Made by a program: the position numbers and the translations under genes. Shown in pieces: positions 46,034-48,465 of a DNA stretch of 64,000 nt (position 1 is the first letter of the stretch; every line of letters begins with the position of its first letter). The stretch is from Roseivivax isoporae LMG 25204. GTDB lineage: Bacteria; Pseudomonadota; Alphaproteobacteria; Rhodobacterales; Rhodobacteraceae. Under the pieces are notes generated by a model. That model ran no database searches, was not told the DNA's origin, and worked only from the letters and a program-made list of their open reading frames with translations. The stretch lies in assembly GCF_000521865.1 (NCBI RefSeq), contig NZ_JAME01000005.1, positions 62,001 through 126,000 on the forward strand, in the 5' to 3' direction.

Positions 46034-48202
46034 TCAGGCGAAGCCGTCCGCGAACGCGATCCGGTCGAGCCAGTCCGGCCGGTCGATCAGCGGGTTGCGG
46101 TTGCCCTGCACCTCGGCGATCCAGAAGTTCCGGTGCCGCTCGTGCCGCGAGGGCGGCTCGGCCCGCGCCCAGTCGAGCAGGATCGGCAGGTCGGATTTCA
46201 GGAATTCCCGCCGGCTGCCGGACTTCACGTCGCCGACGATGCCCGGATAGCGCAGCACGAAGTAGAGTGTCGCGCGCGCCACCGCGCCCTTGCCCGCCGC
46301 AGGCTCGAACCTCCGCCCGTCCCTCAGTCCGCACATCGGGCGGACGGCCTCGACGGTCGGATCGCGCAGCGCCTCGAGGGCCCCCGCGGCCGAGGTGGCG
46401 ATCCTGCGCTCCTCTTCCTCGGTGAACTCGGAATAGGGGATGTTCGAGCGGAAGCTGTTGCACTCGGGCTCGCAGGCGAAGAGGTGGTGCAGGTCGGATT
46501 TCTGCGCCCGCGCCTCGGCGGCGCCCTCGAACCACGATTGCGGCACCACGTGTTCGGCGTTGAAGGTCATCGTCGCCTCGAGCGCGGCATCCGCGGCCTC
46601 GAGCGAGGCTGCGCCCAGCGCCTCGACCTGCGTGCCTTCCGCCCGTGCCGTGCGGACAAGCGCCGCGCGCAGCGCCATGCGCTCGGCCACGAACAGCTCC
46701 TCGGGCATCGGCGCGTCGGAATAGACCGAACGCAACGCCCGGTCCTCGTGCCGGTCGATCCACGGGTAGAGGTGGTCATGTCGCGCCGCGGCGTAGGACA
46801 GGACGTGGGTGTGCGTCTGCCGCAGCCGGTCGTGCAGCGCCGCGAACAGCGCGGACGGGCCCGCCTCGGGATCGATGCCGGCATAGTAGGCCGCAGCCGC
46901 CGCGGCGTCGGCCCCCTCGTCGAGGTAGGGGCCGCGCGGATCGAACAGGCTCTCCGCGGATGGCTCCGGCGCGCGCGCGGGCGGCAACGGCGCGGCGGGG
47001 ACGCCGGACGCGGGGCCGAGGCGCACTTCCAGCGTCCAGCGCACGGCACCGTCGGGGCCGATCGCGGGTGACCCGCCCACGACCGGCGCGAGGCCGCCCG
47101 CGGGGACACCCGACAGCGACGCCGGCGCGACGCCGCCCAGCACGCCCGACAGGAGCTCGGCGAGCGGAGCGGGGCGCTTGGCCGCCTCGAACATGGCGCG
47201 GTGTCCGGCCGGAAGGTCGCGCGCCTCCATCTCTGCGACGATCCTGCTGACGCGGATGCCGCGGTTGGCGACGTAGCGGATGGACTCGGGATCGTCGATG
47301 CCCTCGCGGTAGAGCTGCCCGTCGCGGCGCACCTCGACGCCGTCGCGCATCTCGGCCACGCCGGCATGGTGCAGCGCGGCAAGCTGCCACTGGTCGTTGA
47401 GCGCGGGCGCCCCGGACGATCCACGCCGCGTGTCGGTCGAGTAGACCAGGAAATCGTCCTCGGCCCGCACCACGCGGTTCTCGCGGATGGCGATCTGCTG
47501 CCGCTCGCCGCCCGGATGCTGGATGATGTTGATGGGCTCGCCGACGATCGCCTTGCCCGATTCCGCGATGAGGTGGATCCACCCGCGCGAGGCTAGCGCG
47601 ACGCCGTCATCGTTCACCGGCTCGACCGCGACGAGCGTGAAATCGAGCGTTCTGGCCGTCTCGAAGAACCGCCCGGGCTGGAACCGGAACCGCAGGCTCG
47701 GCATCGGCTGGCCGTCGAGACCCAGCGCATGATCGAACTCGATCACGCTCTGCAGCGCGCTCTGCGCGTCGGGAAGCACGTGGTGGTTGGTCATCAGGAG
47801 TTCGGAGGACACCATGAACCCGGTGCCGTAATCGCGCGCACGCCCTGCCCCGTCGCGGACGACGACGCGGCCCACGGCGCGGCTCGCGATCATGCCGCGG
47901 GCGAAGAAGGCGACCGCCATCAGTTCGTTCTGCTCGATCACCCGCTCGAGCACCGAGCGCTCGGGCGGTGTGTCGCGCCCGGCTTCCCGCACCACGTCGG
48001 CGGCAAGGTCGGGCCGGCCGAGCTGCACGAGCCGGGTCACGTAGCGCGGCAGGTCGTCGAGCGCGTTGAGCCGCGCCGGATCGCCACCGGCCGCGGCTGC
48101 CTCGACCTCCTTCACGTCGGCGACGAAGCGGCAGACCGTCTCGCCGGAGGGGTCCGGCCCGCAGACGACCGTGGTGCCGCGCGTGTCCCCCACATGTCCC
48201 AT
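46034..48202 (-). CDS. Trypsin-like serine protease fused to endonuclease I
   Basis: 722 residues with two enzymes in one chain. Residues about 95-330 are a chymotrypsin-fold protease with the full triad in sequence: H141 in TNHHVL, D187 in TLDFTLV and S263 in RRGSSGAPAL. Residues about 438-722 are an endonuclease I (EndA/Dns, PF04231-type) domain. It starts YYAGIDPEAG and LSYAAARHDHLY, with the active-site FNAEHVVPQSWF (E550, H551), SDLHHLFACEPECNSFRSN, and the C-terminal RNFWIAEVQGNRNPLIDRPDW. A Pro/Ala-rich linker (about 350-430) joins them. Residues 1-90 are helical and unassigned. There is no signal peptide, although free endonuclease I is normally exported. The start at 48202 has a GGGAGG site. 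Function unknown. Confidence 0.85.
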   Translation of the reverse strand: MGHVGDTRGTTVVCGPDPSGETVCRFVADVKEVEAAAAGGDPARLNALDDLPRYVTRLVQLGRPDLAADVVREAGRDTPPERSVLERVIEQNELMAVAFFARGMIASRAVGRVVVRDGAGRARDYGTGFMVSSELLMTNHHVLPDAQSALQSVIEFDHALGLDGQPMPSLRFRFQPGRFFETARTLDFTLVAVEPVNDDGVALASRGWIHLIAESGKAIVGEPINIIQHPGGERQQIAIRENRVVRAEDDFLVYSTDTRRGSSGAPALNDQWQLAALHHAGVAEMRDGVEVRRDGQLYREGIDDPESIRYVANRGIRVSRIVAEMEARDLPAGHRAMFEAAKRPAPLAELLSGVLGGVAPASLSGVPAGGLAPVVGGSPAIGPDGAVRWTLEVRLGPASGVPAAPLPPARAPEPSAESLFDPRGPYLDEGADAAAAAAYYAGIDPEAGPSALFAALHDRLRQTHTHVLSYAAARHDHLYPWIDRHEDRALRSVYSDAPMPEELFVAERMALRAALVRTARAEGTQVEALGAASLEAADAALEATMTFNAEHVVPQSWFEGAAEARAQKSDLHHLFACEPECNSFRSNIPYSEFTEEEERRIATSAAGALEALRDPTVEAVRPMCGLRDGRRFEPAAGKGAVARATLYFVLRYPGIVGDVKSGSRREFLKSDLPILLDWARAEPPSRHERHRNFWIAEVQGNRNPLIDRPDWLDRIAFADGFA

Positions 48203-48465
48203 GGCGCGCCCTCCCGTCAGCAGGGCCGCGCGCGGGGCGGCGCGGGGCGGAGGGACCGGACAGATGGCGGTGCAGTGGTCGCTGCGAAGCGCATGGCTGG
48301 AAATCCCGTGTGTGAAAATGATCGGTCGGCTCTTCAATGGGGTCCAGCATGCCAGCCCGCCGCCAAAAGACCAGTCCGGATTGCATGACCCCCGGGGCCG
48401 TCCCGCGGCGCGTGTGCGCACGCCCCCTTGATGCGGTGCGGCGGCGACGTTACGTTTCCCCTCAC
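48203..48465. other. Divergent intergenic region before the thi riboswitch
   Basis: 263 bases between the protease-nuclease start and the riboswitch. No gene is supported. It must contain the promoters for both directions, but no convincing -35/-10 pair stands out. GTGTGAAAATGATCGG near 48309-48324 is AT-richer than its surroundings. Confidence 0.4.

What the first reader, a model, noticed from the sequence alone, without database searches (positions are those of the whole stretch)
46034..48202. Cytosolic fusion of a trypsin-like protease and endonuclease I
Seen: one 722-residue chain carries a full serine-protease triad (H141, D187, S263) and an endonuclease I domain with its active-site EHVVP and downstream motifs. 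There is no signal peptide. Known: endonuclease I (EndA/Dns/Vvn) is normally a small exported enzyme, and trypsin-like proteases joined to effectors occur in bacterial conflict systems. Inference: this is a protease-gated intracellular nuclease, perhaps a self-cleaving defence or cell-death effector. The Pro/Ala linker between the domains is a natural cleavage site, and the N-terminal 90 residues could be a sensor or adaptor. It stands alone, so sensing may be built in.
Basis: partly seen in the sequence, partly recalled or inferred. Interest (0 to 1): 0.82.

Follow-up and report, generated by a model that had tools for sequence, protein, structure and literature searches.

The report
Protease–nuclease fusion, likely self-destruct effector
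A bacterium carries one protein that joins a protein-cutting enzyme to a DNA-cutting enzyme, apparently kept inside the cell; it looks like a new version of known bacterial self-destruct or anti-virus effectors, in which the protease probably controls the nuclease.

Summary
On the minus strand (48202 to 46034) a 722-residue chain joins a trypsin-like protease (H141, D187, S263) to a complete endonuclease I (E550, H551, N582), with no signal-like N-terminus. The architecture recurs at 36-56% identity in Thalassovita, Shimia, an acidobacterial MAG and a Streptomyces plasmid; a Mesorhizobium protein adds a second nuclease. It is accessory: 1 of 9 same-genus genomes.

The protease module belongs to a modular family whose sisters carry NucA, EEP-nuclease or lipase. 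Published counterparts are 'NucA-trypsin' (Kaur 2020) and Caulobacter LypC. I found endonuclease I in that slot in no paper listed.

The strongest new fact: this EndoI subclade (C[E/D]xxCN motif) is protease-linked in 6 of 6 inspected plasmid copies that are intact or nearly so: fused to trypsin in 2, directly behind a subtilisin gene in 4 (two near-copies). Six ordinary plasmid EndoI genes had no such neighbour. One decayed Nostoc copy is unlinked. Two unrelated proteases partnering one nuclease argues for functional coupling.

Cleavage, trigger and killing are untested; in LypC the protease was required for lysis and the nuclease dispensable. Verdict: new variant of a known kind.

The parts
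46034..48202 (-). whole gene, 722 codons plus stop: trypsin-like protease + endonuclease I fusion
   Evidence: full-length relatives
48209..48215 (-). probable ribosome-binding site (GGGAGGG) before ATG
   Evidence: sequence printed; inference
47951..48202 (-). N-terminal region, residues 1-84, probably helical, no family match; role unknown
   Evidence: helices in a low-confidence model only
47234..47950 (-). protease module shared by the modular family, residues 85-323 (starts at LERVIEQ)
   Evidence: profile boundaries; alignment
47372..47827 (-). Trypsin_2 domain, residues 126-277; triad H141 (47780-47782), D187 (47642-47644), S263 (47414-47416); D257 (47432-47434) six residues before the serine
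46928..47233 (-). Pro/Ala/Gly-rich linker, residues 324-425, not conserved in sequence
47015..47044 (-). short strand-like motif in the linker, VRWTLEVRLG, residues 387-396; counterpart of xVxxPLxIxxSxG in several sister proteins
   Evidence: function unknown
46037..46927 (-). endonuclease I domain, residues 426-722; E550 (46553-46555), H551 (46550-46552), N582 (46457-46459); clade cysteines C577 and C581 (C[E/D]xxCN) and C624
46556..46720 (-). segment between the YS motif and the catalytic EH (residues 495-549), longer than in ten other EndoI; candidate gating insertion

Best explanation
It is a laterally acquired, cytosolic protease-nuclease effector of the LypC / NucA-trypsin kind with endonuclease I in the nuclease slot. 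Most likely it is kept quiet in healthy cells. On phage infection, or another intracellular trigger sensed by the N-terminal region or by an unlinked partner, the protease becomes active. It then cleaves its own chain (in cis or between copies) and probably other proteins, and this frees or un-gates the endonuclease I, which degrades cellular and phage DNA and kills or dismantles the cell. SHOWN here: domain order, conserved catalytic residues, lack of a signal-like N-terminus, patchy distribution, exchange of partners on the protease module, and repeated linkage of this EndoI subclade to two unrelated serine proteases. INFERRED: lateral acquisition, cleavage, gating, trigger, killing and defence.
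For: Both active sites are conserved. No hydrophobic N-terminus in the six fusions or three free-standing nucleases (highest 0.77). When only the nuclease was searched against plasmids (20 records) five records matched over at least 80%, and a sixth (Lysinibacillus MHQ-1, pieces over 50% there, 89% with query P0007) is a near-copy of one of them. Two are fused to the trypsin module and four lie directly behind an S8 gene on the same strand; the junction runs from a 13-base gap to an 8-base overlap in the three annotated ones. The Lysinibacillus S8 matches 'Major intracellular serine protease' at E 6.9e-128. Six other EndoI genes from the same searches (no C[E/D]xxCN; 5 of 6 with a clear signal-like N-terminus) have no annotated protease within about 4 kb and no tblastn match to five protease queries: 6 of 6 against 0 of 6, Fisher p 0.002, not corrected for shared ancestry; PLSDB gene tables are incomplete. 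The protease module is joined to NucA, EEP, lipase or EndoI in sister proteins. Accessory: 1 of 9 same-genus genomes, and none of the other 294 family genomes sampled shows matches to both domains (as a rule only three candidate places per genome were scored). Plasmid or, by eye, relaxase context in Streptomyces, Mesorhizobium and Shimia. Precedent: HamM and the AVAST nuclease are pro-enzymes opened by a partner trypsin-like protease (PMC12799240; abstract, Results part 1, Discussion and passages seen).
Against: In Caulobacter LypC the nuclease residues H471/N505 were dispensable for lysis while protease S296 was required (PMC13236601 section 9). No LypA/LypB, EAD or defence neighbour is seen. 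Nucleases with signal-like N-termini sit beside relatives: an EEP protein (by eye) after an 82-base gap in Shimia and S1/P1 in Rhizobium sp. 007, which suits a secreted-enzyme reading. No conserved cleavage site was found. The candidate gating insertion (50-56 residues in fusions, 35-55 in free-standing) overlaps the range of ten other EndoI (18-42); ten further EndoI frames could not be measured. The AlphaFold model was too poor to show gating (mean pLDDT 46). Nostoc HK-01 has a decayed subclade copy with no protease found nearby. Gloeothece verrucosa also reached 80% coverage with query P0007, at 31.7% identity, and is an ordinary, unlinked EndoI.
Confidence: 0.45

Rival explanations
1. Protease-led version, as in LypC: the protease is the death or lysis signal, acting on other cell proteins, and the fused nuclease is an accessory that cleans up DNA or stabilises the protein. 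The protease does not gate the nuclease.
For: LypC S296A abolished lysis while H471A and N505A did not, and deleting the nuclease domain destabilised LypC (PMC13236601 section 9). Partners of the protease module are swapped or absent in relatives, which suits an add-on.
Against: The EndoI subclade keeps a protease partner even when the protease fold changes from trypsin to subtilisin, which an independent add-on need not do.
Confidence: 0.3
2. A degradative enzyme for use outside the cell, released by lysis, vesicles or an unrecognised export route, for feeding or for clearing debris.
For: Relatives stand beside nucleases with signal-like N-termini or beside genes annotated as murein-degrading; sister proteins carry lipase domains and, by eye, SGNH- and lysozyme-like regions.
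Against: No hydrophobic N-terminus in 9 of 9 clade proteins scored; the Bacillaceae partners include an intracellular-serine-protease relative; ordinary EndoI and several distant trypsin relatives in the same searches do have signal-like N-termini.
Confidence: 0.17
3. A barrier against incoming plasmid or phage DNA in which the nuclease acts continuously and the protease removes bound proteins or the nuclease itself (turnover control).
For: Plasmid carriage of several relatives; both active sites conserved.
Against: A constantly active non-specific cytosolic DNase should be toxic to its host; no antitoxin-like neighbour was noticed, by eye.
Confidence: 0.06

Closest known systems
LypC of Caulobacter crescentus (LypABC, CARD-NLR-like system; PMC13236601, section 9 and passages read)
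   Same: N-terminal trypsin-like protease, linker, C-terminal endonuclease; alphaproteobacterial
   Different: Endonuclease I here, while LypC's residues H471/N505 suggest another nuclease type (inference); no lypA/lypB neighbours here; the LypC sequence itself could not be compared
NucA-trypsin system ('System 3'; Kaur et al. 2020, PMC7159879, section 32 and passages read)
   Same: Trypsin-like peptidase fused to or in an operon with a nuclease; mostly alphaproteobacteria; the same protease module occurs with NucA in P0013 and L011; subtilisin (S8) domains can also flank NucA in that system
   Different: Nuclease is endonuclease I instead of NucA; no EAD1 detected; single gene
Gated MBL nuclease-protease pairs in Hachiman, AVAST, Lamassu, DRT and canu (PMC12799240; abstract, Results part 1 of 2, Discussion, passages read)
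   Same: A DNase paired with a trypsin-like or other protease; recurrent acquisition; extra segment near the nuclease active site
   Different: Unrelated nuclease fold; nuclease separate there, fused here; no helicase or STAND partner seen here
Endonuclease I (EndA/Dns/Vvn, PF04231)
   Same: Nuclease domain and catalytic residues
   Different: No signal-like N-terminus; C[E/D]xxCN cysteines; protease-linked; longer segment before the catalytic EH
S8 protease + EndoI gene pair of Bacillaceae plasmids (seen here)
   Same: Same EndoI subclade (36-40% identity), no signal-like N-terminus
   Different: Protease is subtilisin-type, in part intracellular-serine-protease-like, and a separate adjacent gene

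Membership tests
Trypsin-like (Trypsin_2) serine protease | Domain match with intact H-D-S triad | tested here: met
Endonuclease I (PF04231) | Domain above curated cut-off with catalytic E-H and N | tested here: met
   (98.3 bits, cut-off 25); residue roles recalled
Exported EndA/Dns/Vvn-type endonuclease I | Signal peptide | tested here: not met
   hydropathy only; no trained predictor available
NucA-trypsin system (System 3) | Trypsin-like peptidase fused to or in an operon with the nuclease | tested here: met
   same protease module with NucA in relatives
NucA-trypsin system (System 3) | Nuclease is NucA (Endonuclease_NS) | tested here: not met
   Endonuclease_1, no Endonuclease_NS match
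NucA-trypsin system (System 3) | EAD1 in a subset | tested here: inconclusive
   no EAD1 in own genome but no control rang; no Pfam EAD in P0001 at E up to 1
LypC / CARD-NLR system | Protease-linker-endonuclease architecture | tested here: met
   against PMC13236601 section 9
LypC / CARD-NLR system | Operon with CARD-trypsin-ATPase (LypA) and NLR (LypB) | tested here: not met
   no such neighbour by eye; of 9 Trypsin_2 matches in the genome, the 8 others show no LypA layout by eye; LypB tested only indirectly
LypC / CARD-NLR system | Sequence relationship to LypC | not testable with these tools
   LypC sequence was not found under a name in the collections used
Gated pro-nuclease of a protease pair | Protease linkage across genomes | tested here: met
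   6 of 6 plasmid records of the subclade inspected, two of them near-copies; one decayed Nostoc copy unlinked
Gated pro-nuclease of a protease pair | Insertion blocking the active site | tested here: inconclusive
   longer segment in fusions, ranges overlap; model too poor
Gated pro-nuclease of a protease pair | Proteolytic activation of DNase | not testable with these tools
   needs biochemistry

The most novel reading that the evidence does not exclude
This EndoI subclade is a further fold of protease-gated pro-nuclease, after the MBL type and possibly NucA. It has been coupled to two unrelated cytosolic serine proteases: trypsin in one chain in Proteobacteria, Acidobacteria and Actinobacteria, and intracellular-type subtilisin in two-gene pairs in Bacillaceae. 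In the fused form sensor, activator and executioner sit in one self-processing polypeptide, a one-gene inflammasome-like suicide switch.
Probability: 0.25. Interest if true: 0.75.

Novelty: new variant of a known kind. Interest (0 to 1): 0.5.

Why it matters
If true, it shows that protease-nuclease coupling arose with yet another nuclease fold and with a separate subtilisin-type partner, so proteolytic control of DNases would be a general design in bacterial conflict rather than a feature of a few lineages. The Bacillaceae pairs would give a simple, genetically tractable two-gene system in which the question 'does the protease switch on the nuclease?' can be answered directly, and would suggest a specific role for plasmid-borne intracellular serine proteases.

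Tried and rejected

Death-fold (CARD/EAD) N-terminus: no Pfam hit in P0001; EAD1 search had no ringing control. Not claimed either way.

Phage carriage: no relative in IMG/VR with the fusion, nuclease or nuclease-alignment queries; an alignment of the whole fusion (A1), whose patterns came from the protease, gave 3 weak loci that I did not read; GenBank phages gave only part-length EndoI hits, 2 and 4 records. Not supported as a phage gene.

Insertion-site proof: in three relatives the thi genes are conserved but the genes on the other side of the fusion are not found beside them, so no clean empty site could be shown. Composition gives no hint of recent import (GC 0.71-0.74 over the gene, 0.68-0.77 around it).

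LypB in the own genome: AAA_16 has 50 matches; the best looks like a MalT/LuxR-type regulator by eye and L105 like a ClpA-type ATPase by eye; the others were not examined.

Single origin of the EndoI-trypsin fusion: the protease tree needs 3 changes and 0% of 200 bootstrap trees make it one clade, but well-supported branches force only 1, so independent origins are suggested, not shown. L020 has a very long branch in that tree.

S1-pocket specificity: Asp six residues before the serine was found by pattern in 25 of 28 modules; one had no pattern match, one matched at another place, and L020 has Asn. Arg/Lys preference is only a guess.

More Bacillota genomes could not be reached, so the subtilisin pair rests on four plasmid records. 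Of the 20 records, 13 were inspected: six of the subclade (H43-H48), six ordinary ones (H51, H52 seen as H69, H53, H55, H59, H61) and the Nostoc fragment (H62 seen as H71). Seven were not (H49, H50, H54, H56, H57, H58, H60).

Dropped rows: 20 other EndoI frames were found; 9 had no EH motif by my pattern and 1 no upstream Y, leaving 10 for the spacing comparison. In one search all 28 modules entered the tree.

Full report
WHAT IS THERE. The open frame is on the minus strand, 48202 to 46034, 722 residues. Pfam finds Trypsin_2 (126-277) and Endonuclease_1 (544-709), both well above cut-off. The nuclease is complete: alignment with three free-standing relatives places its start near residue 426, and profile comparison with solved EndoI chains (2g7e, 1ouo, 2vnd, 1oup, 2pu3) aligns the catalytic half. 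The triad H141-D187-S263 is invariant in the seven aligned proteins; the EH pair is E550-H551. The N-terminus is not hydrophobic.

SURROUNDINGS. Downstream on the other strand lie thiD, thiO, thiG and further thiamine genes; on the other side a Tex-like RNA-binding protein, CHAD, ParA and CYTH genes (names by eye; positions used). I noticed no defence, mobile or secretion gene next to it, by eye. PADLOC gives only weak matches to RT-Protease_XI over the protease. The genome has one EndoI and nine Trypsin_2 matches: three look like HtrA/Deg proteins, and of the eight besides P0001 none shows the LypA layout, by eye. The host belongs to the same family as a genome with a contig of 382,321 bases, the exact length of a Qingshengfaniella plasmid, so it is probably a member of the Rhodobacterales; this is an inference.

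DISTRIBUTION. The fusion is accessory. One of 9 same-genus genomes has it, the window's own. In the family sample 35 of 295 genomes match somewhere at E up to 0.001, but only the window's shows matches to both domains; one other genome (G292) matches the nuclease alone (as a rule three candidate places per genome were scored). The EndoI profile matched 2 of 240 genomes of the class, the window's own included, and 3 of 247 in the phylum of the acidobacterial relative, that relative included; the two extra hits there lack the cysteine motif and have signal-like starts by eye. Named full-length relatives: Thalassovita autumnalis, Shimia sp. (12.6 kb contig with a relaxase-like gene by eye), a Pyrinomonadaceae MAG, a Streptomyces europaeiscabiei plasmid and, with an extra EEP nuclease between protease and EndoI, a Mesorhizobium plasmid.

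A MODULAR FAMILY. The protease module (85-323) recurs with different partners: NucA by Pfam in a Planctomyces MAG and in L011, NucA by annotation on Rhizobium, Paenibacillus, Nostoc and Sinorhizobium plasmids, EEP nuclease in L018 and EEP plus EndoI in Mesorhizobium, LCAT-type lipase in L008, or nothing in short proteins (L016, L017). L013 (NucA), L019 (EEP), L009 and L010 (lipase) were assigned by likeness, not scanned. SGNH- and lysozyme-like regions in L011-L013 and Geminocystis are by eye only; Pfam did not report them for L011 and L012. In the protease tree the three Rhodobacterales fusions form a supported group; the EndoI label needs three changes and never forms one clade in 200 bootstrap trees, though supported branches force only one.

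THE NUCLEASE SUBCLADE IS PROTEASE-LINKED. I searched plasmids with the nuclease alone. Of 20 matching records five match over at least 80%; a sixth, Lysinibacillus MHQ-1, matches in pieces (50%; 89% with query P0007). Two of the six are fused to the trypsin module and four are separate genes directly behind an S8 gene on the same strand. The two Lysinibacillus loci are near-copies (protease 97% identical), and the MHQ-1 nuclease reads in several frames and is not annotated. The L. fusiformis protease matches solved intracellular serine proteases (E 6.9e-128); the P. megaterium one is 55% identical to it; the P. filamentosa one directly before the nuclease is more distant (30%), with an ISP-like gene (56%) about 3 kb further upstream. 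The nine aligned subclade proteins share C[E/D]xxCN and a CG cysteine and have no hydrophobic N-terminus. Six ordinary EndoI genes from the plasmid searches lack that motif, five of six have clearly hydrophobic N-termini, and none has a protease nearby by annotation or by tblastn with five protease queries. Fisher's test gives p 0.002 with or without the near-copy, uncorrected for shared ancestry. One of the six, Gloeothece verrucosa, reached 80% coverage with query P0007 at 31.7% identity. A Nostoc HK-01 remnant belongs to the subclade by sequence, is decayed, and has no such protease nearby. Seven of the 20 records were not inspected.

HOW IT PROBABLY WORKS. Because the nuclease keeps a protease partner while the protease fold and the gene arrangement change, the two activities are probably coupled. 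The simplest coupling, with a direct precedent, is proteolytic activation: HamM and the AVAST nuclease are pro-enzymes cut by a trypsin-like protease, in HamM at two inserted loops over the active site (PMC12799240). Here the segment before the catalytic EH is 50-56 residues in the six fusions and 35-55 in the three free-standing ones, against 18-42 in ten other EndoI, which is suggestive but overlapping. The trigger is unknown: the first 84 residues match no family. The counter-example is LypC, whose protease but not nuclease was needed for lysis (PMC13236601), so a protease-led mechanism is a serious rival.

WHAT SPEAKS AGAINST. Nucleases with signal-like N-termini adjoin two relatives (Shimia; Rhizobium sp. 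007); a secreted-cocktail reading cannot be excluded. There is no conserved cleavage site, no good structure, and no defence island or partner gene that I could see.

NOVELTY. In the open-licence library no listed title or abstract start pointed to a trypsin-EndoI fusion or an S8-EndoI pair; the protease-nuclease paper has no occurrence of 'endonuclease I', 'subtilisin' or 'NucA'. Subscription papers, including the original CARD-NLR paper, were not seen. The kind (protease-nuclease effector) is known, and subtilisin domains beside NucA are already described (PMC7159879, section 32). The EndoI version and its two-gene pairing with an intracellular-type subtilisin are the new parts.

Noticed in passing
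L039:5964-7735, L040:5614-7756, L042:5779-7687, L063:5662-7437: Bacillaceae plasmids pair an S8 protease gene (intracellular-serine-protease type in L039, L042 and L063) with an EndoI gene lacking a signal-like start; the nuclease in L063 reads in several frames.
   Followed up: partly
L098:647-8214: Rhizobium sp. 007 plasmid carries a same-strand cassette: LCAT-type lipase, two proteins without Pfam match (by eye a metalloprotease with HETTH and an MBL hydrolase with THEHMDH), S1/P1 nuclease with a signal-like start, trypsin-like protease and NucA: a compact degradation kit.
   Followed up: partly
window:47015-47044 and linkers of P0012, P0013, P0014, L008-L010: A short strand-like motif (xVxxPLxIxxSxG or similar) lies between protease and partner, or near the C-terminus in the lipase-protease proteins; meaning unknown.
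   Followed up: partly
L094:1468-7431: Geminocystis plasmid: the protease nearest in the tree to the Rhodobacterales fusions carries an SGNH-like region by eye and is followed by GH19, TPR, amidase and murein endopeptidase genes as annotated.
   Followed up: no
L038:8650-11421: Mesorhizobium protein joins trypsin, EEP nuclease and EndoI in one 923-residue chain (two nucleases, one protease).
   Followed up: partly
L012:130-3606: A very long frame (at least 1159 codons, runs off the locus) with a trypsin domain between regions that look SGNH-like and lysozyme-like by eye; Pfam reports only the trypsin domain.
   Followed up: no
L113:3886-4237: Nostoc sp. HK-01 plasmid holds a decayed, mostly unannotated copy of the protease-linked EndoI subclade with no matching protease found nearby.
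   Followed up: partly
window:43312-46030: CHAD, ParA-like and CYTH genes adjoin each other, which might link polyphosphate granules to a partitioning ATPase (names and idea by eye and from memory).
   Followed up: no
L002:6539-7456: An EEP-family protein (by eye) with a signal-like N-terminus follows the Shimia fusion gene after an 82-base gap.
   Followed up: no
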